Part shown: positions 8,995-30,899 of the stretch, piece by piece
Layout: each line of letters starts with the position of its first letter
Position numbering within the stretch: the stretch's first letter is position 1
NCBI GenBank assembly: GCA_021162245.1
Contig: JAGGZD010000056.1
Coordinates: forward strand, 1-35,390
Direction of reading: 5' to 3'
Length of the DNA stretch: 35,390 bases
Source of the DNA: Dehalococcoidia bacterium
GTDB lineage: Bacteria; Chloroflexota; Dehalococcoidia; GIF9; AB-539-J10
Notes under the pieces: generated by a model
The model's input: only the letters and a program-made list of their open reading frames with translations
Database searches by the model: none
What the model was told of the DNA's origin: nothing
Made by a program: the position numbers and the translations under genes

Positions 8995-10455
8995 ATGATA
9001 CAAATGACGCGTAAGAAGCGAGGAAATTGTCTGGTAATGGCAGTGCTGCTGTTCCTGATAGCCTGCCTGCCCATTACTGCCCCTTTGCCAGTGGCAGCTA
9101 TTAGTCTTAACCCCTTCGATTATTTCGAAGGCGACTACTGCATCACCTTTAGCGAGAACGAGGTACAGGAGGATAAGGTTTTCTACCTGGAGATTAATGG
9201 ACAGGTGGAATGTATCCAGGATTTGCCCTTTGGGGCAAACCAGGCTGATATTGCTGTAAGCATTACGGCACAGCACAAGGAGACTGGTGATGTCGTGGTG
9301 CTTAATTCCGCTTATAGCGTCACTATACAGCCGGTTCCCGACTGGGAAGGCGATACCTTTGCAATGGAACTGTCCATACCACTGATTTTGCCCGCAGGGA
9401 GCCAGCCGGGAGAGTATGAAGTGGTTGCCCATCTTGAGCAGGCAGAGGTTGATGGCTGGGACATTACCAACCTTATCCCTGAAAGCTACCATTCATACTC
9501 TATCGGGACAGTTACCTGTGCAGAGATTCCTGTGCCTCCTCCCCCGCCAGTGGAAATCCCTGGCCATATTACGCTGGATATACTGGGAAACAGCTATGAA
9601 TATGAAATCTGGGACGATGGCAGTATCGCTGAGTCCGTCAATCTCAACCTCGTAGAGGGGGAAGTGGGCATTTATATCTCCAGTGGCACTCTCTGCCTTG
9701 ACAGGCATGATGAAGCGCTGAGCTACATTTCGGTGAATGGGGAAACATCTCCTCCAGATTATGAGTCTGGCTCGATAATCACTGCCTATAAATTCGCACC
9801 CGGCGGAGCCACTTTCGATCCATCGTTGGAGCTTACCCTGAGCTATGATGCGGTAAATTTGCCAGACGAAACGGCAGAGGAGGCATTGCATATTGCCTGT
9901 TATGACTATAGCGCACGGCAATGGACAGCGCTGAAAAGTGAGGTCGACGAGAGGGCAAATACCGTCGAGGCTAAAGTCAGCCACTTCAGCACCTTTGCCA
10001 TAATAGCGGATTCCGCTCCGCCAGCGCCAGCATCTTTTGTAATCAGCGATTTGAGCATCGACCCTGTCCATGTTGAGCCAGGGCAGTCAGTCACTATCTC
10101 TGTGAGGGTGAGTAACGACGGTGGCACGGAAGGCAGCTACACCCTCAAACTGCTGATAAACGATAAGCAGCAAAATAGCTGGGAAATAATCCTGGGCCCG
10201 GGAGGCAGCAAGACGATAAGTTGCCAGGTAGGGAAAACCAGAGAAGGAGAATACAGCGTAATCATGGGAGGATTGAGCGGTAAGTTCAGCGTGGGGTCGG
10301 TATCTTCGGCAGAAGTGCCTGCTGCAGGGCCCACTCAGGAACCAGAGCAGGACTCGGCTACTTCTCCGACTCCGAACACCTCCTTGCTTTCCTGGCTGCT
10401 CGAACACTGGCTGCTGGTTGTTGTGGTGCTCTACTTCGCCGTGTTTGTCCTGTAA
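8995..10455 (+). CDS. Secreted, membrane-anchored modular surface protein with CARDB-like domain
   Basis: A 486-residue protein with an N-terminal signal peptide (basic MTRKKR then a hydrophobic run, probable cleavage near PVAA). A beta-rich region (about 36-175) is followed by a Pro-rich linker. Next is a domain found in many bacterial and archaeal surface proteins (about 250-340), with GGATFDPSLELTLSYD and ending VSHFSTFAI. A CARDB-like adhesion domain follows (about 345-435; DLSIDPVHVEPGQSVTISV), then a Ser/Thr/Pro linker and a C-terminal hydrophobic helix that ends the protein without a positive tail. The start ATG is preceded by AAGG; an internal ATG at codon 4 is possible. Its own promoter lies at 8932. 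The CARDB and anchor part is homologous to that of the protein at 12369. No enzymatic motif is visible, so an adhesive or structural role is inferred. Confidence 0.85.
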   Translation: MIQMTRKKRGNCLVMAVLLFLIACLPITAPLPVAAISLNPFDYFEGDYCITFSENEVQEDKVFYLEINGQVECIQDLPFGANQADIAVSITAQHKETGDVVVLNSAYSVTIQPVPDWEGDTFAMELSIPLILPAGSQPGEYEVVAHLEQAEVDGWDITNLIPESYHSYSIGTVTCAEIPVPPPPPVEIPGHITLDILGNSYEYEIWDDGSIAESVNLNLVEGEVGIYISSGTLCLDRHDEALSYISVNGETSPPDYESGSIITAYKFAPGGATFDPSLELTLSYDAVNLPDETAEEALHIACYDYSARQWTALKSEVDERANTVEAKVSHFSTFAIIADSAPPAPASFVISDLSIDPVHVEPGQSVTISVRVSNDGGTEGSYTLKLLINDKQQNSWEIILGPGGSKTISCQVGKTREGEYSVIMGGLSGKFSVGSVSSAEVPAAGPTQEPEQDSATSPTPNTSLLSWLLEHWLLVVVVLYFAVFVL

Positions 10456-10541: not shown

Positions 10542-10598
10542 CAGAAATATAGCATCTGGTGACTAATGTGTCTTAAAAATAAGTAGTGAGGCGTGAAA

Positions 10599-12152
10599 AT
10601 GAAGAAGAGAGAATGGCGTAATAGAGTAATTCACTTCATAGTGGTTCTGTCATTGTGCCTGGCAATAATAGCAGCGCCGGCAGTGGCGATAAAGGCGGAT
10701 GACTCGGCAACATACACGGCATGCTGCTGTGAGGACTGGCTGATTAACCAGGTTGAGTCAACCAGAGTACCTGACATTACCGTCCCTTCGGTGAATCTGA
10801 CTGCTGCACACGAAATGCGTATCGATGATGCCAGCATGACCATCCTGGGTGCCAGCATAGCGCTCAATCATGTCGTGTTCGCTTTTAATGACACTGCTCC
10901 AGACACTACAGTTACAGTAAGTGGTGAGTTGTCACTCATTCTGCCGATACCCGATTCAGAAGATTTGTCGCTGAGCCCACGCTTCAGACTGGAATGCACA
11001 GTAAGCTGCGAGGCAGGAGATGCGCCGCAGCTAAGTGATATCAATGATATCAACATTGCTGGTGAGAGTTACTCGCTGTCGACGAGCGAGCTCGACACTA
11101 TCATGGACACCATTAATAGCGCAATCGATGCCAGCGGGTGGACATTAGGTTCGTCGCCGGATGGAAATTTAATGGGTATAGACGTCAACAGCAGCGGTGA
11201 ACTGGTGTTAAGCTGGGATGATGGTGACCCGACGAGTCTTGATGCCACTGCTGTCACGGGCAAGCTGCAAAGCGCCATGGACATTCTGGTTGATGAGGCA
11301 AACAATTATTTAAGCACAGGCTATGGTGACCCCAACGGGAAATGGTGGCTTCGTGTAGCCATCGTTACCGATACCATGCTGACCTTAAATGCGCAGGCAA
11401 CTGTTTTTGGCCTTACGGCGAAAATAGAAGATATGGATATCACGTTCCCAGGTTGCACAGCCGTAAACGCAACAGGTACTGTGTCCCTTGAGGGCAAGCA
11501 AGCAACTTTTGATGCAACTGGTAGCATATGCGGTGCTAACTACACTCCCGACCTGTCTCTGGATACTCTGGGCATCGATTGTGAATATTCTGTTATCAAT
11601 GACCTGGTCAAGGATAATCAGGCTGACCTGTGCGATGCGCTGAGCACTCTCGCTACCAACGTCATCGAAGAGATAGGGCTTACCTGTCCCGTCTGCTTTA
11701 ACAACATCGGCATTGAGGGTGATAACTTGAAGGTGTGGCTTGAAGGCATTCCCATCACTGGTGTAACTTATGAGGTCAATTGTGAGATTTTACCAGAGGT
11801 GACAGTCAAGCTCTTCGACAACGGAGAAAACCTCCAAGATAGTACTACCAGTGACGTAAACGGGAATTATACTGTGTACGCTCCTGAGGCTGGGAACTAT
11901 ACTGTGATTGCCAGCAAGACAGATTTCCTGGATGAGACGCAGGAACCAGTAGAGGTGAAGGAAGGTGATGACTCAGTAACGCTGGACTTCTGTGGTGACC
12001 ATGGGCTCATTCCTCTGGTTATTCGTTTGCCTGAGACGAGTCTCGATTATTTCCTGCTTTGCATGAATCTGTATCTGGAAGATTGGGGAGAATATGATAT
12101 TGGGTTGGACAAGTTCCTGGCAACGATGAATGCCTATCTGGAGCGATGGTGA
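10599..12152 (+). CDS. Secreted protein with carboxypeptidase-regulatory-like domain and shared C-terminal module
   Basis: A 517-residue exported protein of unknown function. The track starts at a GTG at 10593, but the ATG at 10599 has GAGG 7 nt upstream, so it is preferred. A signal peptide (KKREWRNRVIHF, hydrophobic run, ending near AIKA) is followed by about 360 residues I do not recognise, rich in Asp, Ser and Thr with scattered cysteines (ACCCEDW near the mature N-terminus, later CPVCFNN). The last 126 residues hold a carboxypeptidase-regulatory-like beta sandwich (VTVKLFDNGENLQ, SDVNGNYTVYAPEAGNYTV), then FCGDHGLIPL and an end beginning LDYFLLCMNLYLEDWGE. This module recurs in the cysteine peptidase at 14863. 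There is no C-terminal membrane helix, unlike the neighbours on either side. The gene has its own promoter and ends before the promoter at 12213. Confidence 0.82.
   Translation: MKKREWRNRVIHFIVVLSLCLAIIAAPAVAIKADDSATYTACCCEDWLINQVESTRVPDITVPSVNLTAAHEMRIDDASMTILGASIALNHVVFAFNDTAPDTTVTVSGELSLILPIPDSEDLSLSPRFRLECTVSCEAGDAPQLSDINDINIAGESYSLSTSELDTIMDTINSAIDASGWTLGSSPDGNLMGIDVNSSGELVLSWDDGDPTSLDATAVTGKLQSAMDILVDEANNYLSTGYGDPNGKWWLRVAIVTDTMLTLNAQATVFGLTAKIEDMDITFPGCTAVNATGTVSLEGKQATFDATGSICGANYTPDLSLDTLGIDCEYSVINDLVKDNQADLCDALSTLATNVIEEIGLTCPVCFNNIGIEGDNLKVWLEGIPITGVTYEVNCEILPEVTVKLFDNGENLQDSTTSDVNGNYTVYAPEAGNYTVIASKTDFLDETQEPVEVKEGDDSVTLDFCGDHGLIPLVIRLPETSLDYFLLCMNLYLEDWGEYDIGLDKFLATMNAYLERW
11772..12152 (+). 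repeat. Shared C-terminal module, copy 1 (coding)
   Basis: This segment encodes the last 126 residues of the protein at 10599. It aligns with the last 123 residues of the peptidase at 14863 (16564-16935), from EVNC to the final Trp. Both copies share the FLDET turn, DFCGDHGLIPL, and the terminal aromatic block. DNA is also clearly similar at the 3' end, pointing to duplication or domain shuffling. Confidence 0.85.
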
Positions 12153-12212
12153 ATTTCCACTATATACTGTGCCTGGATGAAGGAACAAATTTTAACCACA
12201 GGTCTTTGCTTA

Positions 12213-12241
12213 TTGACAGTGAGTGGGCGCTGGCATATTAT
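12213..12241 (+). promoter_or_regulatory. Strong sigma70-type promoter of the third surface-protein gene
   Basis: TTGACA (12213-12218), exactly 17 nt, and TATTAT (12236-12241). It leaves a leader of about 120 nt before the ATG at 12369; I see no clear regulatory fold in it. Confidence 0.72.
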
Positions 12242-12368
12242 ATAGGTAGTAGTGGTAACTTGAGGTAAGCTGAGTGTTAATTTGCCTTGCAAGCTACTGA
12301 CATGTGCTTCCTGGCATTTGTAATATACATTTAGGAAGGAAATTTTTACAAGGAGGTAGAAGAAAAAT

Positions 12369-14669
12369 ATGAATCCGAGAAGGTATCTTAAATTTATGAA
12401 CCTTGGTTTGACGGGCCTTTTGATGGGGTGTCTACTCATTGTGTCGGTAGGGGTTCCGTCTGTATCCGTATCAGCCGCTTCTCCTGCCGCAGCTATAAGA
12501 AACCTGCCAAATAATGCAGTGTTGCCGGGGGAAACTTTCACGGTTGAAATAACTTTTGTAGCTCCTGATGATGATTGTAAGAGTCTTGGCATCCATGATG
12601 AATCTCCAACCAGTTCCAGTGACTGGTTGACCGATGGAGATACAGGCTGGTGCAACCCCAATGCATTCACGGTAAAATATGGGGATGAAACGGACAACCT
12701 TATAGAATACACATGGCAGGGCCCTTATGAACAGGGAACGACTGTTAAAACAGTTTACCATGTTACTGTTCCTGATAATGTCCTGCCGGGGAAATATCAT
12801 TTTCCGGTGAGTGATAATACCACAGCATGGTTTGGGTACTATATTGGTACCAACCCATATAAGGTAGCTATCACTGGTGAGTGTCAAGTAACGGTTGAGA
12901 AGCCTGCTGAGGTATGGGTAGATGATGACTGGGCAAGCAATTCCACGGGGGATTATGTAGATGGTCATGTATTTGGGTATGATGCCTTTTCTACCATACA
13001 GGATGGTATTGATGGAGTTGGCAACAGCACGGTGAACGTGCTGGAAGGGACTTATGGTGCCTTCAATATTACCAGCTGGGATGGTCTAACTATAAGTGCG
13101 GAATCTGGTGCTGTGGTCAACGCTACTGCCCCATTCTCCGATAGTGGTTGGGATATTGATGTTATGGGGCTGATAAGCAACTCAACGAATATCAGAATTG
13201 ATGGACTTGAGTTCGATGGTAGCTCCTTATCTAACTCGAAGGACGAATATGGAATCTTTTCCCTTAATAGCACTGCCGATTTCACAGATTTGTCTGTGCA
13301 TGATCTGGATAGCGATAGTGGTAGTAGAGGAGTTGGCATAGGCGTAGTTGGAGGACTAACAACAGCAGATATTTCGGAATGCACGATTGCTGACTGCGAG
13401 ATCGGTATAAAGGTGAAAAATGACACGGCAAATATCAGCGACTGCACCATCACGGGGATGAATGGGTGTAGCACGAAAAGCATTGGAATCCAGGCACAGT
13501 CTGGCGCCGTGGTAAATGCTGATGGCTGTGATATAAGCAAGTGTGTTACCACTTCTCCTCCTCCTGCTCCCGTCCCTGGCCAAGCGAGTTGGTGGGGCAA
13601 GGGCGTTGAAGCGAGAAGTGGGGCAACGGTGGTGCTGGACTGCTGCAACAAAATTCACCACAATGATGTTGGCATATGGGTTGAATCTGGCGCCTGTGGA
13701 GAGGAACCACAGGTTAGTGGTGGCTACCTGACAGCCAACGACAACTCGATATATGACAATACCAATTATGGGCTTTATTATGAAGGGGGCGTTGTTGAGG
13801 GACTTGAAGCACCTGGGTTCATATTGGCTAGTTCTGTTGATGCGGAGGAGAACTGGTGGGGTCATGCCAGTGGTCCTGGTGGAGCGGGTGATGGTTCAGG
13901 TGATAATGTGACCGCCGGCGTGGACTTTATCCCCTGGTTAGATGCTCCATGTGATGAACATCCTGAAACGGTCGGCCCGAATGCGGAGTTCTGGGGAACA
14001 CCGACCACAGGGCTGGAACCTCTGTGCGTTGACTTTACTGATGAGTCGGAACCATATGATGAGTGGGATATAGTGGAGTGGGCATGGGACTTTGGTGACG
14101 GTACCACTTCCACGGAGAAGAACCCGACGCATTGTTACCCAGCAGCTGGCACTTACACTGTCAGCCTGGAAATAACCGACGAAGAGGGGCTGAGCGACAC
14201 CGAGACCAAAGAGGGGTACATAGTGGTGAGGGCGCCTGAGGGACTACTGGCACCTCCGGAGCCGGCGAACTTCGCTGTCTCTTATATGAAAGTGTCACCG
14301 CAGCAAGTGCTGCCTGGCCAAGAAGTGGAGATTTCTATTAACATTGCCAATCACGGTGGAGAGAGTGGTGCTCACAACGTGGCACTGTTCATCAATGGGT
14401 ATGTCGAACAGAGCCAGACTGTATCCGTTTCGCCTGGGGCTACCAGACTGGTAGTCTTCAGAACTTCGAAGACAGTGCCCGGCACATACCAGGTATCAAT
14501 GGAAGGTGCGGAGGGACAGTTCATCGTCCTTGACGTTTCGGAAAGCACAGCGCAACCTGCCGCTACTGCTGGTGGTGGTGGACTTGGCACGGCTGGCATA
14601 ATAGTGATTGTGGTGGTGGTAATAACGCTTGTTGTGGCGTTGGTTTTTGGAGTGATCAGAAGGGAATAA
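12369..14669 (+). CDS. Large secreted protein with beta-helix, PKD and CARDB-like domains and C-terminal anchor
   Basis: A 766-residue surface protein behind AAGGAGG. It has a signal peptide ending near VSAASP. An N-terminal beta domain (about 40-180) carries FTVEITFVAPDDDCK. A right-handed parallel beta-helix follows (about 185-500), with NosD/DUF1565-like stretches such as VWVDDDW, FSTIQDGID and repeated turns (DISECTIADCEIGIKV, NISDCTITGM) and the end marker ENWWGHASGPGG. A PKD domain (about 535-625) has the diagnostic WAWDFGDGTTSTEKNPTH and AGTYTVSLEITDE. A CARDB-like domain (about 635-725) precedes a Gly-rich linker and a transmembrane helix ending RRE. The CARDB and anchor resemble those of the protein at 8995. 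Parallel beta-helices often bind or cleave polysaccharides, but I see no catalytic signature, so carbohydrate binding or adhesion is inferred. Confidence 0.88.
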   Translation: MNPRRYLKFMNLGLTGLLMGCLLIVSVGVPSVSVSAASPAAAIRNLPNNAVLPGETFTVEITFVAPDDDCKSLGIHDESPTSSSDWLTDGDTGWCNPNAFTVKYGDETDNLIEYTWQGPYEQGTTVKTVYHVTVPDNVLPGKYHFPVSDNTTAWFGYYIGTNPYKVAITGECQVTVEKPAEVWVDDDWASNSTGDYVDGHVFGYDAFSTIQDGIDGVGNSTVNVLEGTYGAFNITSWDGLTISAESGAVVNATAPFSDSGWDIDVMGLISNSTNIRIDGLEFDGSSLSNSKDEYGIFSLNSTADFTDLSVHDLDSDSGSRGVGIGVVGGLTTADISECTIADCEIGIKVKNDTANISDCTITGMNGCSTKSIGIQAQSGAVVNADGCDISKCVTTSPPPAPVPGQASWWGKGVEARSGATVVLDCCNKIHHNDVGIWVESGACGEEPQVSGGYLTANDNSIYDNTNYGLYYEGGVVEGLEAPGFILASSVDAEENWWGHASGPGGAGDGSGDNVTAGVDFIPWLDAPCDEHPETVGPNAEFWGTPTTGLEPLCVDFTDESEPYDEWDIVEWAWDFGDGTTSTEKNPTHCYPAAGTYTVSLEITDEEGLSDTETKEGYIVVRAPEGLLAPPEPANFAVSYMKVSPQQVLPGQEVEISINIANHGGESGAHNVALFINGYVEQSQTVSVSPGATRLVVFRTSKTVPGTYQVSMEGAEGQFIVLDVSESTAQPAATAGGGGLGTAGIIVIVVVVITLVVALVFGVIRRE

Positions 14670-14690
14670 GCCTGTTCTGACAGGAAATTT

Positions 14691-14725
14691 AAAGTAGGGA
14701 GTGGCTTTTAGCTGCTCCCTACTTT
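14691..14725 (+). terminator. Hairpin terminator after the beta-helix gene
   Basis: AAAGTAGGGAG (14691-14701) pairs exactly with CTCCCTACTTT (14715-14725); two G-T pairs extend the stem inward. It begins 22 bp after the stop codon. The sequence after the stem is only moderately T-rich, so efficiency is uncertain. Confidence 0.6.
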
Positions 14726-14835
14726 CTAGTATTATGATATGTGTAATTATTAATTTGAATGTATAATCAGGTGGAGATACAGCGCAATAACCTAAAATTG
14801 TTTGAAATGGCAACAGGTTCAATACAGTTTTAGGG

Positions 14836-14841
14836 TATAAT
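14836..14841 (+). promoter_or_regulatory. Likely -10 element before the cysteine peptidase gene
   Basis: A consensus TATAAT sits 21 bp before the ATG. No good -35 box lies at 16-18 nt, so this would be a weak or activator-dependent promoter. Confidence 0.4.
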
Positions 14842-14862
14842 AATTGTCATAGGATTAGCCAT

Positions 14863-16935
14863 ATGAATAAGAGAATATGCGGCATCAAAAATGGAGGCTT
14901 GGCAGGCATCTTAAGTGTAGTTGTCTGTCTTATCCTTGCCTTTGCGTTTGTAGGCTTAAATGTGCCGGGGATTGTCCAGGCAGGTGATGGCAACCGTATT
15001 TATCCTGTCATGCAGCCCGATAGGGAAACCATGGAAGAATGGATAGAGTCCTATAATAGTGCTCCCAGGGCATCGATAGAGATGAGAGGGCTCCAGGGGG
15101 CCAGCACAGGAGGATTGCTTAGTCTTCTTGACCATCTGGACTATACAGCTTCTGAACGTGACCAAGGTTCTTGTGGCAACTGCTGGGCATGGGCTGGCAC
15201 TGGCTGCATGGGGATTGCACTTGATGTCCAGGAGGGAATAAAAGGCCGCCTGTCGGTGCAATATCTCAACTCCTGTGAAGATGATATAATCGGAAAGCCT
15301 TGCTGTGATGGAGGATGGTTGTCTAACTTGGCAGACTTCTATACTGCTACTAATATGGCCATTCCCTGGTCCAATACCAATGCCTACTGGCAGGATGGCG
15401 ATGCATCATGCGATACAAATTGCGGCTCTATCTCTACTGATCCCAATTACCCTATCACTTCTATCCAGGAACAGGTAGTTCCCACTCTGCCCCTAGATGG
15501 GGTGATGGACCAAGCAACTGCGATTGCCAATATCAAGGATGTGCTGAGTCAGGACAGAGCTGTCTGGTTCGGTTTCTTTTTGCCTACTGGCGCTGCCTGG
15601 AGCGATTTTAAAAGCTTTTGGAATACTAGTGGTGAGAGTATCGTTTATGACATGGATAAGTTTTGCGGTGTTCCCGATGAGCTTGCTGGCGCCCATGCGG
15701 TTCTGTGTGTGGGCTATAATGATACGGATCCCGATAACGCATACTGGATTATGCTGAATAGCTGGGGGACGACTGCCAGGCGTCCCAATGGCCTTTTCCG
15801 CATAGATATGGATATGGATTATGGCTGCAGTTATCCGATTTGTGGCTATGCATTCTACTGGCAGACACTGGATATTGCCTTTGCCATGAATGTGCCTGAT
15901 ATCACGCTTTCCCCCGAGAGCTTCGATGTGACTCTTCCCTCAAACACAACCCAGGATTATACATTGACTATTGGTAATGAAGGCAGTGCTAATCTTGATT
16001 ATACTATCAGTGATGAAGATACTACGGAAGCTGGAAGGGCAGATTGCACATGGCTGGATGAGACTCCTGATTCAGGCACAGTAGTGACAGGCGGACCTGC
16101 TGATAATATCACTGTTAGCTTTAACAGCACCGGACTTTCTGTAGGGGACTACAGTGCTGATATAGTTGTTTCCAGTAATGACCCTGATGAAAATTCTGAG
16201 ATAGTGCCGGTGGTTCTGCACGTAGTAGTGCCGGACTTGGTAATCACTGAAAAGCATGAAGAGTGGATTGACTTTGAGGCAAAGAGCTATAACATAACCT
16301 GTACGGTGGAAAACCAGGGGGATCTGGTGGCAGGTGCCAGTAAGACCGGAGTATGTATTGATGCTGGCTCCTGGGGTTTTTATGATTGCCCTGCATTGGA
16401 GCCAGGAGCTTCCAATTGCAGTACACTTGGCCCATTTATCCTGTCGGGCGACAGCGATAGCATCCTTGTTTGTGCCGATAAACAGGATGAAATTGATGAG
16501 AGCGACGAGGGCAACAATTGCAGTCAGAATACGTGGGGAACCGTGATAGCAGGGGTAACAAAGGAGGTTAATTGTCAGCCACTTGGAGAAGTGACCATAA
16601 AGCTGTATAACAATGGTGGTGTGGAAGGTATGACCACCAGCGATGGTGAAGGAAACTATTCCTTCACTGCTTACATTTCCACACAAGGCAATTACGAATT
16701 GGTGGCCAGCAAAGCGGATTTCCTGGATGAAACACAGCCTGTTACAGTGGGAGCTAGCAACATCACGCTGGACTTCTGTGGTGACCATGGACTTATTCCC
16801 CTGACCACTCCTAAGGGAGGAGGTTTAGATTATTTCCTGCTTTGCATGAACCTCTATCTGGAAGGTTGGGGCGAATGCAACATTGGTCTGGATAAATTCC
16901 TGGCTACGCTGAATGCTTATTTGGAGTCATGGTGA
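14863..16935 (+). CDS. Secreted papain-family (C1A) cysteine peptidase with CARDB-like and shared C-terminal modules
   Basis: A 690-residue exported peptidase. A signal peptide (about 1-40) is followed by a short pro-like stretch and the papain domain (about 85-340). The oxyanion Gln101 and nucleophile Cys107 lie in DQGSCGNCWAWA, the catalytic His278 in AHAVLCVGYND and Asn299 in MLNSWG, so the triad is complete. Next are a BACON/Hydin-like domain (about 345-457; TLTIGNEGSANLDYTI), a CARDB-like domain (about 458-565), a carboxypeptidase-regulatory-like domain and the 36-residue terminal block shared with the protein at 10599. There is no transmembrane tail. The propeptide region is much shorter than the inhibitory propeptides of classical papains. 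It probably acts outside the cell on peptides or on surface proteins. The upstream AGGA is a modest ribosome site. Confidence 0.92.
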   Translation: MNKRICGIKNGGLAGILSVVVCLILAFAFVGLNVPGIVQAGDGNRIYPVMQPDRETMEEWIESYNSAPRASIEMRGLQGASTGGLLSLLDHLDYTASERDQGSCGNCWAWAGTGCMGIALDVQEGIKGRLSVQYLNSCEDDIIGKPCCDGGWLSNLADFYTATNMAIPWSNTNAYWQDGDASCDTNCGSISTDPNYPITSIQEQVVPTLPLDGVMDQATAIANIKDVLSQDRAVWFGFFLPTGAAWSDFKSFWNTSGESIVYDMDKFCGVPDELAGAHAVLCVGYNDTDPDNAYWIMLNSWGTTARRPNGLFRIDMDMDYGCSYPICGYAFYWQTLDIAFAMNVPDITLSPESFDVTLPSNTTQDYTLTIGNEGSANLDYTISDEDTTEAGRADCTWLDETPDSGTVVTGGPADNITVSFNSTGLSVGDYSADIVVSSNDPDENSEIVPVVLHVVVPDLVITEKHEEWIDFEAKSYNITCTVENQGDLVAGASKTGVCIDAGSWGFYDCPALEPGASNCSTLGPFILSGDSDSILVCADKQDEIDESDEGNNCSQNTWGTVIAGVTKEVNCQPLGEVTIKLYNNGGVEGMTTSDGEGNYSFTAYISTQGNYELVASKADFLDETQPVTVGASNITLDFCGDHGLIPLTTPKGGGLDYFLLCMNLYLEGWGECNIGLDKFLATLNAYLESW
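16564..16935 (+). repeat. Shared C-terminal module, copy 2 (coding)
   Basis: This encodes residues 568-690 of the cysteine peptidase and corresponds to 11772-12152. Differences are concentrated in the beta-sandwich loops, while the FCGDHGLIPL stretch and the terminal aromatic block are nearly invariant. That is the pattern expected if the very end of the protein is recognised by a cellular machine. Confidence 0.85.
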
Positions 16936-25259: not shown

Positions 25260-25289
25260 TTGACCTGAAGTTTAAGGCATTGTTACAAT
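25260..25289 (+). promoter_or_regulatory. Promoter of tRNA-Ala
   Basis: TTGACC (25260-25265), 18 nt and TACAAT (25284-25289) place transcription start a few bases before the mature tRNA 5' end at 25299. The antisense tail of the serine recombinase gene ends within it. Confidence 0.6.
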
Positions 25290-26927
25290 GCAGCCTGAGG
25301 GGATATAGCTCAGTAGGGAGAGCGCTGCGTTCGCAACGCAGAGGTTGGGGGTTCGAATCCCCCTATCTCCACCAAGGGTTTCAATAGGTAGAACTCCTAT
25401 TTGGTCCTTTGTTTTTCTATTTGTTGGTAGCGGCAGGTTATAGTGTATTGTAACCTGCTTTTTGTTTACCTCTATCCGTTTGATAAATGAGCGCAGGAAA
25501 GCCTTTCTCTCAATGAAGTCAGCTTCTTCAAGCAAGCCACGCAGGTCTCGGGCATAGGTTTTCACTAGATCAATATTTACTTGTTCAACACCCGCAGCTA
25601 TCATCTCCGCTTCTATCTCAACTCTGGTCATACTGAGTTGGTCCTGGCGGACCTTCAGTTCTTTAATTCTGGGCGCCAGATCATCAAGTTGGAGTTTTCC
25701 CGTTTCCAGAGCATCATAAAGCCTGGATAACCTGGACCTAACATCCACAAGTTCAGCGTCAATAACATCCATGCGGCCTTTAAGCACAGATGAGTTAGAC
25801 TGTAGTTCCTCATTTACCAGCTTTACCAATTCCTCGAGGTTTTCATCGGTCAGCACTTTGGCCCGAAGCTGCTCTATTACAAGTTTTTCTAATTTGTCCT
25901 TTGGTAACATCCTGGCATCGCAGGCATCTTCACCTTGCTTGAAACTCTTAGAACAGAGATAATAAAAATATCTATGAGATTTGGCGCTATGTCCGACCAT
26001 GGCTGCGCCACAAGAGCAAAAGAGAATCCCACTAAGAAGATAGAAACTGGGTACAGTACGCGGGTGAGTAACCTGCGGCCTTTTCAAGGTCATCTTTCGT
26101 TGGACTAATTGGAAGGTTTCGGGATTGATAATAGCTGGCCAGGCATTCTGCACTCTTATTGGAGGCTCACTACTATGGATTGCTGGATGTCCTGGTCTTC
26201 CACCCCACACCAGTGTGCCACAATAAGCTTCGTTAGTAAGCACTTTATGAATAGTTCCTCGGCCCCATCGTTCACCCCTACTTGTACGCACGCCTTCCTT
26301 GTTCAAGGTTTTGGCAATCTCCTTACATCCTATGTCCTTTGCTGCCATGTCAAATATCCTTCGAATTGTGTGTACAGCTACGGAATCCTCAGCCTCGGGT
26401 TCAAGCTTGTTTCTGGTCTTTGTCCCGTCCGAGACGGCTATCTTACGGAAGCCATAAGGTGGCCTGCTACCATTAAAAAAGCCTCTGGAAGCGTTTTCTC
26501 TCATACCTCGCTTGATATCCTGCCCGAGTTTGGCACTGTAGAACTCGTCTATAGACTCAATTACTCCCTCGAGCAATCGGCCGGTAGGGCTATCATCCAG
26601 AGGTTCATTGACAGAAATGACATCGATACCCTTGTTGCGTAGCAGGGTTTTATAAGTAATAGAATCAGCCCGGCTACGAGAAAAGCGGTTCAATTTCCAT
26701 ACAACTATGGCTTCAAAGGGTGGCTCCTTAGTCTTTGCCAGAGCCATCATCTCTCTGAAAGCAGGCCTCGCTGCGCTCCTGCCGCTCTCAGCCTCATCGA
26801 CGAATTCCCGCACTACCTGGTGCCCATTTCTCGATGCATAATCTCTCAAGCTTCTAAGCTGGGCTGATATGGACAGATCGACATCCTGTCTGTCTGATGA
26901 TACTCTGGCATAAAATGCTACTTTCAT
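25272..26927 (-). CDS. Large serine recombinase (integrase of the mobile element)
   Basis: A 551-residue site-specific recombinase. The resolvase domain begins MKVAFYARVSSDRQ, with nucleophile Ser10 and partner Arg8, and continues with VWKLNRFSRSRAD. Then come the recombinase domain (PYGFRKI, then EIAKTLNKEGVRTSRGERW), a zinc ribbon (CSCGAAM...YYLCSK...CDAR) and a coiled coil (about 385-470). The track starts at 26996, but the ATG at 26927 with AGGAGG 6 nt upstream gives the family N-terminus. The final ~33 residues, from GGDRGIRTPNL to the stop, are the antisense of tRNA-Ala and its promoter, hence chromosome-encoded. In the excised form the tail would differ. It probably integrates and excises this element. 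It follows the gene at 26939 by 11 bp in one operon. Confidence 0.93.
   Translation of the reverse strand: MKVAFYARVSSDRQDVDLSISAQLRSLRDYASRNGHQVVREFVDEAESGRSAARPAFREMMALAKTKEPPFEAIVVWKLNRFSRSRADSITYKTLLRNKGIDVISVNEPLDDSPTGRLLEGVIESIDEFYSAKLGQDIKRGMRENASRGFFNGSRPPYGFRKIAVSDGTKTRNKLEPEAEDSVAVHTIRRIFDMAAKDIGCKEIAKTLNKEGVRTSRGERWGRGTIHKVLTNEAYCGTLVWGGRPGHPAIHSSEPPIRVQNAWPAIINPETFQLVQRKMTLKRPQVTHPRTVPSFYLLSGILFCSCGAAMVGHSAKSHRYFYYLCSKSFKQGEDACDARMLPKDKLEKLVIEQLRAKVLTDENLEELVKLVNEELQSNSSVLKGRMDVIDAELVDVRSRLSRLYDALETGKLQLDDLAPRIKELKVRQDQLSMTRVEIEAEMIAAGVEQVNIDLVKTYARDLRGLLEEADFIERKAFLRSFIKRIEVNKKQVTIHYNLPLPTNRKTKDQIGVLPIETLGGDRGIRTPNLCVANAALSLLSYIPSGCIVTMP
25299..25374 (+). tRNA. tRNA-Ala (anticodon CGC), 3' CCA encoded
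   Basis: A complete 76-nt cloverleaf: acceptor GGGGATA pairs with TATCTCC. This includes G3-U70, the identity pair for alanyl-tRNA synthetase. The D-arm is GCTC...GAGC, the anticodon stem CTGCG/CGCAG with loop TTCGCAA (anticodon CGC, reading GCG), and the T-arm GGGGG TTCGAAT CCCCC followed by ACCA. The tRNA is intact although a mobile element starts at its 3' end, so integration must have restored the 3' part. The recombinase ORF covers the entire tRNA on the other strand. Confidence 0.96.
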
Positions 26928-26938
26928 ATCTTCCTCCT

Positions 26939-27850
26939 CTACATGCCGAGACGTCGGCAAATTCGGCACTGCCCCGGGATAAGCCCCATCATGCATATCT
27001 CTTCAGCAGCTCTTCTCGTTTTGGTGGTTGATGCTATGTGCGCTTCATAGCTTCTCATGAGCGTGTTCTTTATTTGTGTTGTTGACAGTTCCTTGAGTGC
27101 AGCAATGATATTGGTTCTGCAATTTTCTTCTTCGCCAAGAGCGAACGCCAGAGTGGTGCCTTGCCCATATTTGACCTGGCCTGTGTCGCTATCGGCAGAG
27201 ATGCTCTCCTCCATTCCAGCGATATCGAAGGGGAGTGGCAAGCTCATGAGGAGATAATGAGAAAGATGGTCAACTGCAGGCAAAAAGAGGCAGTGATCCC
27301 CTACAGCTCCATCTCTGAACTCGTACCCCGTTTTATTCTGGAGCAGTTCTGCTAGCTTCTGCTTAAGGTTCACGCGCTCCTCAATATGTGAGGAGAGTGT
27401 CCTCTTCCAAACCTGCAAAGCTCTGCTCAATGGATCCCTTTTCAGATGCTCCATAAGTAGCTGCCACTGTGCCTCAGCTTCGATATCCAGAGTAACCTCC
27501 GAGACCTCAGGATCAGGCCAATTTTGATACCTTGCTCTACCGCCAGGGAATGTCAATAATCCTATATCGGTTTCTCCCCAGGGGATGGCCTGGCTCGCAG
27601 GAAGAGGCTGAAGCACGACTACTAGTTTCTCTACGAGGTTTATCAGGCCTGTATTGTGCTTCTGCAGGGTTTCCTTCAACAGCTCTGCGTGGGCCAAGCT
27701 GATATCTCGCTCGCGCCTGGCATCGGCAATGCCCTTCTTGATCGTTCTGACATCTCGTTTGTACTTGGTCGCTATATCAATCTGCGGCTTACCTTTATCA
27801 TATTCATTCAACCACTGTCTTTTCATAACCATGGAAGTTTTTTTCGCCAT
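26939..27850 (-). CDS. Unknown protein with N-terminal helix-turn-helix, cotranscribed with the serine recombinase
   Basis: A 303-residue protein I do not recognise. Residues 8-45 (MKRQWLNEYDKGKPQIDIATKYKRDVRTIKKGI) resemble the helix-turn-helix of resolvases and transposases. The rest is helical and hydrophilic with no catalytic motif, and the end GQCRICRRLGM has a CxxC pair. GGAGG stands just before the ATG. The gene is first in an operon with the recombinase, under a consensus promoter, which suggests a directionality factor, regulator or DNA-binding accessory. That role is inferred from position only. Confidence 0.8.
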   Translation of the reverse strand: MAKKTSMVMKRQWLNEYDKGKPQIDIATKYKRDVRTIKKGIADARRERDISLAHAELLKETLQKHNTGLINLVEKLVVVLQPLPASQAIPWGETDIGLLTFPGGRARYQNWPDPEVSEVTLDIEAEAQWQLLMEHLKRDPLSRALQVWKRTLSSHIEERVNLKQKLAELLQNKTGYEFRDGAVGDHCLFLPAVDHLSHYLLMSLPLPFDIAGMEESISADSDTGQVKYGQGTTLAFALGEEENCRTNIIAALKELSTTQIKNTLMRSYEAHIASTTKTRRAAEEICMMGLIPGQCRICRRLGM

Positions 27851-27905
27851 TTGCCCTCCAAAAACTTGACAAGCTATTTAAGCATTTATTTACCTTACGA
27901 ATACC

Positions 27906-27935
27906 ATTATATAGGCTATTCTATGCAGTTGTCAA
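27906..27935 (-). promoter_or_regulatory. Consensus promoter of the recombinase operon
   Basis: On the minus strand TTGACA (27935-27930), 18 nt and TATAAT (27911-27906), both boxes perfect. ACTTGACAA occurs at about 27863-27871 and in inverted orientation at 27929-27937, overlapping the -35 box, so a dimer bound to both could silence the integrase operon. Confidence 0.78.
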
Positions 27936-27985
27936 GTGTGACTAGTGTCCAGTCCTGAGCAACCCCGTTTGCTAGAATATAAATA

Positions 27986-28159
27986 ATGGGAAAGATAAGG
28001 AAATCTGCAACGCCCGACTCGCGGTTGGCTTCTAGCGATGAGGAGAAATACGAACAGGGCTTACGGGCATTGGCACGCCTGATTGCCAGAGCACATTTAT
28101 CCAACGTGGCACGCAGACGGGAAAATGCACCATCTCCCAGGAGGAGGCTGGAAACTTGA
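27986..28159 (+). CDS. Small basic protein, 57 residues, upstream of the tyrosine recombinase
   Basis: This ORF is too short for the supplied track. It begins MGKIRKSATPDSRL and ends SPRRRLET, with a central amphipathic helix (YEQGLRALARLIARAHLSN) and basic ends. Its TGA overlaps the TTG start of the recombinase (TTGA), and the recombinase ribosome site AGGAGGAGG lies inside its last codons, so the pair is tightly coupled. Short ORFs of this kind often precede recombinases in mobile elements. No strong ribosome site is seen before its ATG. Function unknown. Confidence 0.62.
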   Translation: MGKIRKSATPDSRLASSDEEKYEQGLRALARLIARAHLSNVARRRENAPSPRRRLET

Positions 28160-28869
28160 AGAATTCGCAGACGCCACATATGGAAACATATCTTGAGCCG
28201 AAGGCAATTGCCTTAATGGAAGAGCAAGCCAGATATGCCAGGGACAGGCTACTTATCAGGTTGCTGTTTCACTTGGGATGCCGTGTTTCGGAGGCCCTGG
28301 CACTGACGGTGGGTGACATAGACTTGAGAAAGGGGCTGGTTACGATTGTCCATCTGAAGACTCGTGTCAAACTATCCTGCCCTCACTGCCAGTCCAGGTT
28401 GTCCAGGTCTCACCAGTTTTGTCCTGCATGCGGTAGCAAGGTAAAGAAAGCAAGCAAAAGCGAAACAGAGAATTGCAGGTTGAGAACGTTGCCGATCGAC
28501 CCGGATACGCTGCAGATGCTCAAGGATTATATCTCCCGTGGCGGCCCAGTTTTGAGGCATGGCAAGATGTATATCTTTGGCATTAACAGGCATCGGGCCT
28601 GGGGAATAGTGAGGGATTGTGCTGAAAGAGCCAACTTGCCTCGCCTCTTGAATCCACAAACAGGAAAAAGCAGAGGCATAAGCCCCCACAGGTTACGAGA
28701 TGCCTTTGCCGTGCACGCAGTGAAGCTTGATGACTCAGGAGACGGGCTAAGGCTTCTGCAGGAACATCTGGGGCATGCAAATTTCAACACGACTGCGAAG
28801 TATCGAAAAATCAGCGGAGTTGAGCACAGGGAGTGGTACGAAAAGCTATGGAAAAAAGACATCCATTAG
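28156..28869 (+). CDS. Tyrosine recombinase with inserted zinc ribbon
   Basis: A 237-residue phage-integrase-family protein consisting of the catalytic domain only. Catalytic residues visible are Arg in GCRVSEALALTVGDID, His-x-x-Arg in SPHRLRDAF, His in QEHLGHANFNTT and the nucleophile Tyr in TAKYRKI. Between the first two is a zinc-ribbon insertion, CPHCQSRLSRSHQFCPACGSK (about residues 75-95). The usual N-terminal core-binding domain is absent, so the protein starts directly at the catalytic fold. The start is a TTG supported by AGGAGGAGG at 8-nt spacing. It may resolve dimers of the element, move cargo, or act with the two downstream small proteins. Confidence 0.88.
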   Translation: MKNSQTPHMETYLEPKAIALMEEQARYARDRLLIRLLFHLGCRVSEALALTVGDIDLRKGLVTIVHLKTRVKLSCPHCQSRLSRSHQFCPACGSKVKKASKSETENCRLRTLPIDPDTLQMLKDYISRGGPVLRHGKMYIFGINRHRAWGIVRDCAERANLPRLLNPQTGKSRGISPHRLRDAFAVHAVKLDDSGDGLRLLQEHLGHANFNTTAKYRKISGVEHREWYEKLWKKDIH

Positions 28870-28973
28870 GTGCGCTACCTTTAAGGCCAAGGAGAGGTGG
28901 CTTTTTGAGGCCCTTTGGCTGCGGTTGGTTTATAAGGGAGTTCCTGTTGGGCCATGGTCCCGGAGGATCACCT

Positions 28974-29381
28974 ATGATAAGCCCGAATGTTGGCGCTCCA
29001 CAAGCAGACATTTTCCATTATTACAAGCGAGCCATTCTCAGAGCGATTGCCGAGGACAGAGCCATCAGGCACGAAGAGCGAGAGGCAAAACGTCAAAAGC
29101 GTCTTATCTCGCCCGACAAAATAGACCAACTTATCAAAAGATATCTGGTTCATGCTCCCTACAAAGTCAACAGCTGTCGCTATCACTCCTTTGTCGTTTA
29201 CTTTTCAAATCTCCAGAGGTTGGGATGGGTGGAGTTTACGGGGCGGGAAGAGCCCTCTTCTCTCCAGGATAACTACCCTGCTGGACAGCCACGTAAGTAT
29301 TTTCGCTTGACTGCAGCCGGGCTCATGGCTGGTGATGCTGCCTGGTCGAACCCCTTGGCTGCTCTCTATGGCAGGAGGTAA
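28974..29381 (+). CDS. Putative winged-helix DNA-binding protein of the mobile element
   Basis: A 135-residue protein. The track begins at 28833, but the ATG at 28974 has CGGAGG with 7-nt spacing and is preferred; a longer form from 28848 cannot be excluded. The N-terminal half is helical and charged (EDRAIRHEEREAKRQKR). The C-terminal part, FVVYFSNLQRLGWVEFTG and GQPRKYFRLTAAG, looks like the recognition helix and wing of a winged-helix domain. The next gene starts 13 bp downstream. Family not recognised; a regulator or replication-associated factor is plausible. Confidence 0.68.
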   Translation: MISPNVGAPQADIFHYYKRAILRAIAEDRAIRHEEREAKRQKRLISPDKIDQLIKRYLVHAPYKVNSCRYHSFVVYFSNLQRLGWVEFTGREEPSSLQDNYPAGQPRKYFRLTAAGLMAGDAAWSNPLAALYGRR

Positions 29382-29394
29382 GGAGGACCATAAA

Positions 29395-29676
29395 ATGTCG
29401 TTTGAACAAGAACACAACAATGGTCTCAACATCCGGGAATTCCATCGGGAGAAACTCCTTGAGCCCGGATGGCCTGGTGAGCTAAGTCCTTCTGAGCTGG
29501 CATACGTCAAATCAGAAATCAGGAAATCGCCTTCACTCAAGAGGATCTGGGGCTTCCGCCCTACAGCGAAAAGACTTTCCGAGAAGCATATACGGGATGT
29601 TGCCAGAAACGGAGTCATTCGCAAAAGCAAGCCAGTTTCAGCTTCAGCTACCAGAAGGCAAAAACCAAACAGGTAG
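29395..29676 (+). CDS. Small unknown protein of the mobile element
   Basis: A 93-residue basic protein starting MSFEQEHNNGLNIREFH, chosen over the track start at 29332 because AAGGAGG lies 8 nt upstream of the ATG at 29395. It has a central segment LSPSELAYVKSEIRKSPSLKRIW and a basic end. The last 17 codons are part of the first copy of the tandem repeat that follows, and a non-coding duplicate of this gene tail is found at 29841. No family recognised. Confidence 0.62.
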   Translation: MSFEQEHNNGLNIREFHREKLLEPGWPGELSPSELAYVKSEIRKSPSLKRIWGFRPTAKRLSEKHIRDVARNGVIRKSKPVSASATRRQKPNR

Positions 29677-29807
29677 GGATAAGCCTCAAAAGGGTTTAGA
29701 CCTTTTACAGGTAGCTACGAAAAGTGGCCCTTGAAGTGCCTTAGAAGCGTATTTCAAGTGACGCCTTAGCCTCTAAGATCAATCTGTTCTGTCAGCCAGG
29801 TAAATTC
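29627..29807 (+). repeat. Tandem 181-bp repeat, copy 1
   Basis: Copy 1 aligns without gaps to 29841-30021 (offset 214 bp) with about 12 differences that I counted by eye. It contains the tail of the preceding gene, then a non-coding part with hairpin potential: AAAAGG-loop-CCTTTT, and CTTAGA with inner GCGT pairing to ACGC and TCTAAG. Most differences between copies lie in the proposed loops or outside the stems. Confidence 0.9.
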
Positions 29808-29840
29808 ATGATGCTGGCAGGAACAGCCTGATTGGCAAAT

Positions 29841-30021
29841 GCAAGCCAGTTTCAGCTTCAGCTGGCAGAAGGCAAAAACCAAACAGGTAGGATAAAGCCT
29901 CAAAAGGGTTTAGGCCTTTTACAGGTAGCTACGAAAAGTGGCCCTTGAAGTGCCTTAGAAGCGTAGCTCAAGTGACGCCTTAGCCTCTAAGATCAGCCTT
30001 TTTTGTCAGCCAGGTAAATTC
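29841..30021 (+). repeat. Tandem 181-bp repeat, copy 2
   Basis: The second copy, separated from the first by 33 bp of unique sequence. It begins with a non-coding duplicate of the end of the upstream gene and keeps both proposed hairpins. The loop TATTTC of copy 1 is TAGCTC here. It may be a structured RNA, a partition or replication site, or simply a recent duplication. Confidence 0.9.
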
Positions 30022-30270
30022 CTATTTTTTGAAAAAGGTTTTTGCGCAATATCATGTAAATATAGGTTCATTTTTTAATATCACAAAACTTCCTTTTGTT
30101 CAATAATAGGATCATAGAATTTGAACATTAACAAATAGCAATCACATAGAGGGTTGCTCATAGAGGAAAGCCAGAAGCCTAACCTTGCTCCAGTCTATTG
30201 CCTCTGAAAAGCAAATGCCTGGCCAGATGTTACCCGGCCAGGCAAATCTAACAAGGGGAGGACATCCACA
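30022..30270. other. AT-rich non-coding region with inverted repeats before the sigma-like gene
   Basis: No ORF is supported. The stretch 30022-30145 is clearly AT-rich, and GTTCAA/TTGAAC form a short dyad near 30100-30125. TGCCTGGCC (30216-30224) and GGCCAGGCA (30236-30244) form a 9-bp perfect stem 27 bp before the sigma-like gene. It has no T-run, so it is more likely an operator or leader hairpin than a terminator. Lying beside the repeats and the clamp gene, an origin or leader function is possible. Confidence 0.45.
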
Positions 30271-30738
30271 ATGCTAGACTGGAAAAAGTATATGGAAATA
30301 GCCGATAAGTTTCAACACAGGGCAAAATACCAGGACAGGGAAGATTTAAAGCAGGACATCGTAGTCAGGCTTGCCGAAGTGGCCAGCAACAATGGGCATA
30401 AGCCGTTTACCGAAGGGGCGATGGTAAGGGTGGCCAGCTATGTGACAATGGAGTACTGGCATAATCTCAAGAGGCAACCTGTAGTATCAAGTCTAAGCAA
30501 TGAGATAGACGGTGGAGATGGCAATACTACCGAGTTATACCAGACTATAGCCGATGATAAAACTATAGACTTAGACGCCTGGATTGACGCTAAGGCCTGG
30601 CTGCTAAGGTGTCCTCAGAGGCTGATAGATATTGCCCATAAAAGGGCGATCGGGCAACCACTAAAAGGCAATGAGCGTCAATACCTATGCCGCCATCGTC
30701 AAAGGGAATTAGCTAAAGTACAAAAAACCCTGGTTTGA
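30271..30738 (+). CDS. Sigma-70-like protein of the mobile element
   Basis: A 155-residue protein. Residues 20-75 (YQDREDLKQDIVVRLAEVA, then VRVASYVTMEYWHNLKRQP) follow the pattern of sigma region 2 (DAEDLvQEvflrl...yl..iarN...d..Rr). The C-terminal third (CPQRLIDIAHKRAIGQPLKGNERQYL) could be a divergent region 4. GGGGAGG precedes the ATG. It lies directly upstream of the clamp-like gene and may direct transcription of element genes. The match is by pattern only; a helical DNA-binding protein of another kind is possible. Confidence 0.6.
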   Translation: MLDWKKYMEIADKFQHRAKYQDREDLKQDIVVRLAEVASNNGHKPFTEGAMVRVASYVTMEYWHNLKRQPVVSSLSNEIDGGDGNTTELYQTIADDKTIDLDAWIDAKAWLLRCPQRLIDIAHKRAIGQPLKGNERQYLCRHRQRELAKVQKTLV

Positions 30739-30851
30739 TGTCACGTTTTGACCTGGTTTTGTCATTATATAAGTAGAGGCAAAAGCAATGCCAGCGGATA
30801 GCGGATTGTGATTAACCTTACAGTTTCAATAATTACCTCGTTCCAATCAAA

Positions 30852-30876
30852 TGCTTAAGCAAGGCTCGTTTAAGCA
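30852..30876. promoter_or_regulatory. Putative operator before the clamp-like gene
   Basis: TGCTTAAGCA is a perfect 10-bp palindrome at 30852-30861, and a second half-site TTAAGCA follows at 30870-30876, 24 bp before the TTG start. The same half-site in two orientations suggests a regulator-binding site. Confidence 0.4.
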
Positions 30877-30899
30877 AATTCAGATAAGGGGGTGATAAA

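What the first reader, a model, noticed from the sequence alone, without database searches (positions are those of the whole stretch)
11772..16935. Shared C-terminal module in a cysteine peptidase and its neighbour: candidate surface-sorting domain
The proteins at 10599 and 14863 differ over most of their length but end in the same ~125-residue module, most conserved in its last ~55 residues (DFCGDHGLIPL, then LDYFLLCMNLYLE...IGLDKFLAT.NAYLE.W). Neither has a transmembrane tail, whereas the two other surface proteins of the cluster do. A conserved extreme C-terminus on otherwise unrelated secreted proteins is how sorting or secretion domains (for example the type IX and PEP-CTERM signals) were recognised. 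I know no named family with this block.
Basis: partly seen in the sequence, partly recalled or inferred. Interest (0 to 1): 0.7.

Follow-up and report, generated by a model that had tools for sequence, protein, structure and literature searches.

The report
Dockerin-replacing module on surface peptidase
Two secreted proteins of an uncultured bacterium end in the same module, which sits exactly where close relatives carry the dockerin half of a known molecular plug; the matching socket on a neighbouring membrane protein is swapped too, so this may be an unrecognised plug-and-socket pair for holding a protein-digesting enzyme on the cell surface.

Summary
P2 (10593-12152) and P4, a papain-type peptidase (14863-16935), differ over most of their length but share a ~127-residue C-terminal module (61% identity over 147 aa). 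It is a CarboxypepD_reg beta-sandwich (PF13620) followed by an unnamed ~50-aa tail built of a duplicated 15-residue helix.

It is not a sorting signal. In related genomes the module is also internal or directly after the signal peptide (4 of 13 copies), it is rare (7 genomes found), and there are only 1-4 copies per genome.

The best clue is synteny. Genome G029 has the same four-gene cluster. There the P2 and P4 homologues end in canonical dockerins instead, and the membrane-anchored P3 homologue starts with a cohesin where window P3 starts with an unrelated beta-sandwich domain (called IGLD here). The window genome (93% complete) has no cohesin and no dockerin match. In two other relatives both proteins share a third module; in G004 P2 has its own membrane anchor.

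Best reading: a docking module that works like an X-module-dockerin dyad without calcium loops, recruiting P2 and P4 to the cell surface, with IGLD on P3 as candidate receptor. Docking is inferred, not shown; the receptor claim rests on one clean matched swap plus co-occurrence.

The parts
10593..12152 (+). P2: secreted protein with unclassified N-terminal domain (residues ~35-385) plus the C-terminal module; no transmembrane tail
   Evidence: homologues of the N-domain in 6 other genomes of the order
11760..11981 (+). P2 module, first half: CarboxypepD_reg beta-sandwich
   Evidence: PF13620 E=2e-11, 44.5 bits over cut-off 32.3
11982..12149 (+). P2 module, second half: duplicated-helix tail (SLDYFLLCMNLYLED / GLDKFLATMNAYLER)
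   Evidence: no family
14863..16935 (+). P4: secreted papain-family (C1) peptidase with BACON/HYDIN-like and CARDB domains, ending in the module; no transmembrane tail
   Evidence: PF00112 E=7e-18, CARDB E=5e-16; motifs QGSCGNCW, AHAVLCVGY, LNSWG read in P4 and in homologues; hydropathy
16549..16767 (+). P4 module, first half: CarboxypepD_reg-like beta-sandwich
   Evidence: PF13620 29.1 bits, just below cut-off 32.3; homologous to that of P2
16768..16932 (+). P4 module, second half: duplicated-helix tail (GLDYFLLCMNLYLEG / GLDKFLATLNAYLES)
12369..14669 (+). P3: membrane-anchored surface protein (signal peptide, IGLD, beta-helix, PKD, CARDB, TM); orthologue of the cohesin-bearing protein of G029
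   Evidence: residues 168-766 align with G029 P3 160-733, 42% identity, E=2e-112
12489..12908 (+). IGLD: N-terminal beta-sandwich-like domain of P3, at the place of the G029 cohesin; candidate receptor for the module
   Evidence: profile of 10 members; no Pfam family over cut-off
8995..10455 (+). P1: membrane-anchored surface protein (CARDB, TM), conserved first gene of the cluster

Best explanation
The shared C-terminus is a docking module: a CarboxypepD_reg beta-sandwich plus a two-fold repeated helix pair. It works like the X-module-dockerin dyad of cellulosomes but has no calcium loops and no detectable dockerin ancestry. It recruits the secreted papain-type peptidase P4 and its partner P2 to the membrane-anchored surface protein P3, most likely by binding P3's N-terminal IGLD domain, which stands where a relative has a cohesin. 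Shown here: the shared module, its two-part anatomy, the internal helix repeat, the conserved gene cluster, and module in place of dockerin plus IGLD in place of cohesin. Inferred: that the module binds anything, that its partner is IGLD, and that the result is a surface proteolytic complex.
For: (1) G029 has the same cluster: P1, P2, P4 and P3 homologues at 39, 28, 56 and 42% identity; there P2 and P4 end in canonical dockerins (PF00404), a small third protein has one too, and P3 begins with a cohesin (PF00963). (2) The alignments stop at the changed domains: P3 168-766 vs 160-733; P2 19-381 vs 10-375. (3) The window genome, 93% complete, has no cohesin and no dockerin match. (4) In each of the 4 genomes with both P2 and P4 the two carry the same kind of terminal module: hairpin (window), dockerin (G029), GWN domain (G034, G024); identities within a pair are 61%, 80% and 50%. 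(5) In G004, and in a frameshifted copy in G001 of the window's own genus, P2 ends in CARDB plus a transmembrane helix instead, so the module takes the place of an anchor. (6) The module profile matches the X-module of X-dockerin structures 4u3s/4wi0 (E=2.5e-4, 3e-4), and the X-module has the Ig-like fold of carboxypeptidase D (PMC5141474). (7) The tail is an internal helix duplication, as in dockerins. (8) IGLD lies beside or inside module proteins in all 5 module genomes with usable context and is absent from 201 kb of other fetched loci. (9) A second, distant papain-type peptidase in G254 also carries the module.
Against: No binding was or could be tested. The two-sided swap is one clean case (G029 against window); in G024 P3 has a cohesin-like domain and a dockerin lies on the same contig, but the better P2 and P4 copies carry the GWN domain. 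IGLD and module share one chain in 5 proteins, so their co-occurrence may be simple domain linkage. The comparison loci were not a random sample and the background frequency of IGLD is unknown. IGLD is not detectably related to cohesin, nor the tail to dockerin. Structure models were poor. Matching modules within a genome could come from gene conversion.
Confidence: 0.45

Rival explanations
1. Attachment module with a different target: it binds another surface protein (for example P1), the cell wall or a glycan, and the N-terminal domain change in P3 is coincidental domain shuffling.
For: Swaps with dockerin, GWN domain and TM anchor at the same position support attachment without naming the partner. 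Surface proteins shuffle domains freely. G758 carries the module on a contig without IGLD (the contig is only 4.7 kb).
Against: P3 is the only other cluster member with a changed domain against G029, and it changed from the dockerin's own partner, cohesin.
Confidence: 0.25
2. Self-association: the helix pairs of P2 and P4 bind each other and assemble the peptidase with its partner.
For: Both cluster members carry it; the tail is short, amphipathic and two-fold repeated.
Against: Single module copies occur in G226 and G030; does not explain the P3 change.
Confidence: 0.12
3. Structural or ligand-binding accessory domain with no docking role (carbohydrate-binding-like beta-sandwich with a helical cap).
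For: CarboxypepD_reg domains are common, poorly understood accessories of secreted proteins; the helices could pack on the sandwich. The module occurs at any position in a protein.
Against: Exact substitution for dockerins and for a membrane anchor on the same two proteins.
Confidence: 0.14
4. C-terminal sorting or secretion signal of the type IX or PEP-CTERM kind.
For: C-terminal in both window proteins and in 9 of 13 copies; carriers with intact N-terminus have a signal-peptide-like start.
Against: N-terminal or internal in G758 and three G254 proteins; rare and low-copy; half of it is a known beta-sandwich family.
Confidence: 0.04

Closest known systems
X-module-dockerin dyad of cellulosomal scaffoldins (e.g. 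PDB 4u3s, 4wi0)
   Same: Carboxypeptidase-D-like Ig beta-sandwich directly followed by a duplicated helix pair; profile match to the X-module (PMC5141474)
   Different: No calcium-binding loops, helix units ~21 residues apart, no sequence relation of the helical half to dockerin; no cohesin in the genome
Cohesin-dockerin surface complexes outside cellulosomes
   Same: Same orthologous gene cluster in G029 uses dockerin on P2 and P4 and cohesin on TM-anchored P3
   Different: Both halves are other domains in the window
Fungal dockerins of anaerobic gut fungi
   Same: Precedent for a docking module unrelated to bacterial dockerins (PMC5737911, PMC12063362)
   Different: Other module family and organisms; partner there is a fungal scaffoldin
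Cysteine-peptidase-like module with X-dockerin, Ruminococcus flavefaciens RflaF_05439 (PMC3573020)
   Same: Papain-like or NlpC/P60 cysteine peptidase fold fused to a C-terminal X-dockerin dyad
   Different: A true dockerin; different peptidase family
NPCBM_assoc / NEW3 domain (PF10633), for IGLD
   Same: Weak similarity in 7 of 10 IGLD members (best E=3e-4)
   Different: Window copy of IGLD does not match it; distinct conserved motif IGLxDxxPxGW ... WxGPYxxG

Membership tests
C-terminal sorting signal (type IX, PEP-CTERM kind) | Always at the extreme C-terminus | tested here: not met
   4 of 13 copies are internal or N-terminal
C-terminal sorting signal (type IX, PEP-CTERM kind) | On proteins with signal peptides | tested here: met
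   Signal-like N-terminal hydrophobic segment in carriers with intact N-terminus
C-terminal sorting signal (type IX, PEP-CTERM kind) | Many proteins per genome | tested here: not met
   1-4 copies per genome
C-terminal sorting signal (type IX, PEP-CTERM kind) | Dedicated processing or export gene co-occurs | not tested
CarboxypepD_reg (PF13620), first half of module | Profile score over curated cut-off | tested here: met
   P2 44.5 bits vs 32.3; P4 29.1 bits, below cut-off but homologous to P2
Dockerin type I (PF00404) | Profile match | tested here: not met
   No match in any of 11 tails at E<=10; none in the genome; hhalign probability 0.6%
Dockerin type I (PF00404) | Two calcium-binding DxNxDG loops | tested here: not met
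   Pattern absent in all 12 members
Dockerin type I (PF00404) | Internal duplication giving two helices | tested here: met
   15-residue helix repeat, shuffle p <= 1.5e-4 in 11 of 12 members, 0.006 in the other
Dockerin type I (PF00404) | Binds a cohesin | not testable with these tools
   No cohesin in the window genome; binding needs experiment
X-module-dockerin dyad | X-module homology of the beta-sandwich | tested here: met
   E=2.5e-4 and 3e-4 to the X-modules of 4u3s and 4wi0; other CarboxypepD_reg-type domains also match, so not specific
X-module-dockerin dyad | Dockerin as second half | tested here: not met
Cohesin (PF00963), for IGLD | Profile or profile-profile match | tested here: not met
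   No cohesin in genome; no cohesin family among IGLD matches; hhalign probability 0.7%
Papain family C1 peptidase (P4) | Profile match with catalytic Cys, His and Asn | tested here: met
   PF00112 E=7e-18; CGNCW, AHAV and LNSWG motifs in P4 and homologues

The most novel reading that the evidence does not exclude
CarboxypepD_reg-hairpin and IGLD form a previously unrecognised, calcium-independent docking pair, unrelated to cohesin-dockerin, that has taken over from cohesin-dockerin (or the reverse) within one conserved surface-peptidase cluster, both halves having been exchanged together.
Probability: 0.35. Interest if true: 0.82.

Novelty: new variant of a known kind. Interest (0 to 1): 0.64.

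Why it matters
Cohesin-dockerin is the textbook docking pair of bacterial surface enzyme complexes. A conserved gene cluster in which both halves appear to have been replaced together by unrelated domains would show that the docking chemistry is interchangeable, give a natural matched experiment on how binding pairs evolve, supply a possibly calcium-free pair for protein engineering, and assign a role to two unnamed domains in uncultured bacteria. It also yields a simple two-protein binding test.

Tried and rejected
Sorting-signal reading: rejected on module position and census. Degenerate dockerin: the helix pattern looks similar by eye (D-M-S-x-V-L-x-x-V-N-x-W-L), but Pfam at E<=10, the calcium-loop pattern and hhalign all fail. 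IGLD as divergent cohesin: hhalign fails and no PDB match has E<0.1. Structure prediction from window sequences only: module pLDDT 50, IGLD pLDDT 40; too poor for a fold search, so none was run. The 85,462-species pattern scan with the window peptide found one Caldilineae locus that matches only through the beta-sandwich. Viral, phage and plasmid collections: nothing. Papers: no description of this module found. Amphipathic membrane-surface helices: hydrophobic moments are moderate (0.20-0.43) and not decisive.
Full report
WHAT IS THERE. Between argJ (minus strand) and yebC-ruvC-ruvA (the latter three named by eye from the sequence) lies a plus-strand cluster of four secreted proteins: P1 8995-10455, P2 10593-12152, P3 12369-14669, P4 14863-16935. 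P2 and P4 are unrelated except for their last ~147 residues, which are 61% identical (E=1e-46). P4 is a papain-family peptidase with BACON/HYDIN-like and CARDB domains; P3 has a beta-helix, PKD and CARDB; P1 has CARDB. P1 and P3 have a C-terminal transmembrane segment, P2 and P4 do not.

ANATOMY OF THE MODULE. It has two parts. The first ~75 residues are CarboxypepD_reg (PF13620; P2 44.5 bits, cut-off 32.3; P4 29.1 bits). The last ~50 residues match nothing convincing in Pfam, NCBIfam or the PDB. In all 12 members compared this tail is a tandem pair of one 15-residue helix unit, e.g. DMWYALDCVNLWLYP / DMWTALDAVNAWLYP (shuffle p <= 1.5e-4 in 11 of 12, 0.006 in the other). The two units lie about 21 residues apart, which leaves no room for the calcium loops of a dockerin, and the DxNxDG pattern is absent. 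A weak model (pLDDT 50) shows strands followed by two helices, 94-106 and 116-129.

Profiles of the tail find it in 5 of 84 held genomes of the order, with 5 solid hits in a 393-genome class sample and 3 of 400 in a phylum sample; seven genomes in all, 1-4 copies each. In G254 the module is internal in a papain-type peptidase, followed by a caspase-like domain, and near the N-terminus of two other proteins; in G758 it sits directly after the signal peptide of a 1249-aa protein. Carriers with intact N-termini have signal-peptide-like starts. So this is a mobile extracellular module, not a C-terminal sorting signal.

THE KEY RESULT: SYNTENY WITH A COHESIN-DOCKERIN LOCUS. Searching the order with the P4 peptidase domain and the P2 N-domain led to genome G029 (same family). 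Contig C118 there holds the same cluster: a P1 homologue (39% over 427 columns), a P2 homologue (28% over 381), a small signal-peptide-plus-dockerin protein, a P4 homologue (56% over 307) and a P3 homologue (42% over 608). In G029, P2 and P4 end in canonical type I dockerins (PF00404; 80% identical to each other) and P3 begins with a cohesin (PF00963). The alignments stop at the changed domains: P3 168-766 against 160-733, P2 19-381 against 10-375. So the hairpin module stands where the dockerins stand, and the N-terminal domain of window P3 (IGLD) stands where the cohesin stands. The window genome (93% complete) has no cohesin and no dockerin match.

MORE SWAPS AT THE SAME PLACE. In G034 both P2 and P4 homologues end in a third, unannotated ~145-aa domain (GWNMVSVPL ... 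GYWV; 50% identical to each other). In G024 the P4 homologue ends in it and the P2 homologue starts it at the contig end. Window P4 and G024 P4 align through peptidase, Ig and CARDB up to residue 570, about where the module begins (563). In G004, and in a frameshifted copy in G001 (same genus as the window), P2 ends instead in CARDB and a transmembrane helix. In all four genomes that have both P2 and P4, the two carry the same kind of terminal module. This is strong circumstantial evidence that the module's job is attachment.

A COMPLICATION. G024 also has a contig (C104) with a dockerin protein, a second peptidase copy in broken reading frames and a cohesin-type P3. Cohesin and dockerin are thus again together, but the contig position of the P3 that belongs to the GWN-bearing pair is unknown. 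The matched two-sided swap therefore rests on one clean comparison.

THE CANDIDATE PARTNER. IGLD (LPxxVxPGxxFxVxVxFxAPxDxFxxIGLxDxxPxGW ... WxGPYxxG) has ten members in the fetched loci. It lies next to or inside module proteins in all five module genomes with usable gene context (G000, G030, G226, G254, G407) and nowhere in 201 kb of other fetched loci, many of which were chosen for cohesins. G030 has a minimal signal peptide-IGLD-TM protein, and G226 a TM-anchored IGLD protein beside the module protein. IGLD matches no family above cut-off; its commonest weak similarity is to the NEW3 domain. Limits: IGLD and module share one chain in five proteins, and the background frequency of IGLD was not measured.

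COMPARISON WITH WHAT IS KNOWN. The module's architecture is that of the X-module-dockerin dyad. The module profile matches the X-module of solved dyads 4u3s and 4wi0 (E=2.5e-4 and 3e-4), and the X-module is described as having the Ig-like fold of carboxypeptidase D (PMC5141474); other CarboxypepD_reg-type proteins match too, so this is a fold-family link, not a specific one. The second half fails every dockerin test (profile, calcium loops, hhalign), and IGLD fails the cohesin test. It may work like a dockerin; it is not one by these tests. Precedents: anaerobic fungi use dockerins with no similarity to the bacterial ones (PMC5737911, PMC12063362); a cysteine-peptidase-like module with an X-dockerin dyad is known from Ruminococcus flavefaciens (PMC3573020); cellulosome-like peptidase complexes have been proposed in Cloacimonadota (PMC8542988).

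VERDICT. Observation confirmed; sorting-signal reading rejected; the surface-attachment part of the reading retained and sharpened. Most likely a non-dockerin docking module in a surface-peptidase cluster, with IGLD of P3 as candidate receptor. I put the attachment role at about 0.7 (best explanation and first rival together) and IGLD as partner at about 0.4; both are inference. A wider census and a binding test are needed.

Noticed in passing
L104 265-4698 (G034), L077 571-2835 and L078 3-1181 (G024): A third shared C-terminal domain of ~145 aa (GWNMVSVPL ... YTWNP ... GYWV) on the P2 and P4 homologues; no Pfam or NCBIfam family covers it.
   Followed up: partly
window 10593-11750 (P2 N-domain): A ~345-aa secreted domain without any family, found in seven genomes of the order, next to P1 and anchored in several different ways.
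   Followed up: partly
L103 6568-14215 (G029): Compact cohesin-dockerin locus: three dockerin proteins, one a papain-type peptidase, plus one TM-anchored cohesin protein; three of the four dockerins found in that genome are here. All three share an extension after the dockerin (SLGIL.KPL.D).
   Followed up: partly
L021 1993-5502 (G254): One secreted protein with both a papain-type (C1) and a caspase-type (C14) peptidase domain, the module between them.
   Followed up: no
window 25272-32231: Serine recombinase (25272-26996, -), tyrosine integrase (28156-28869, +) and a divergent DNA polymerase III beta-clamp-like gene (30900-32231, +): probably an integrated mobile element.
   Followed up: no
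window 29575-30002: Tandem duplication of a 214-bp unit (86% identical) inside the presumed mobile element.
   Followed up: no
L067 567-2043 (G024 C104): Second peptidase copy in broken reading frames between a dockerin gene and a cohesin-type P3 gene: decayed gene or assembly error.
   Followed up: no
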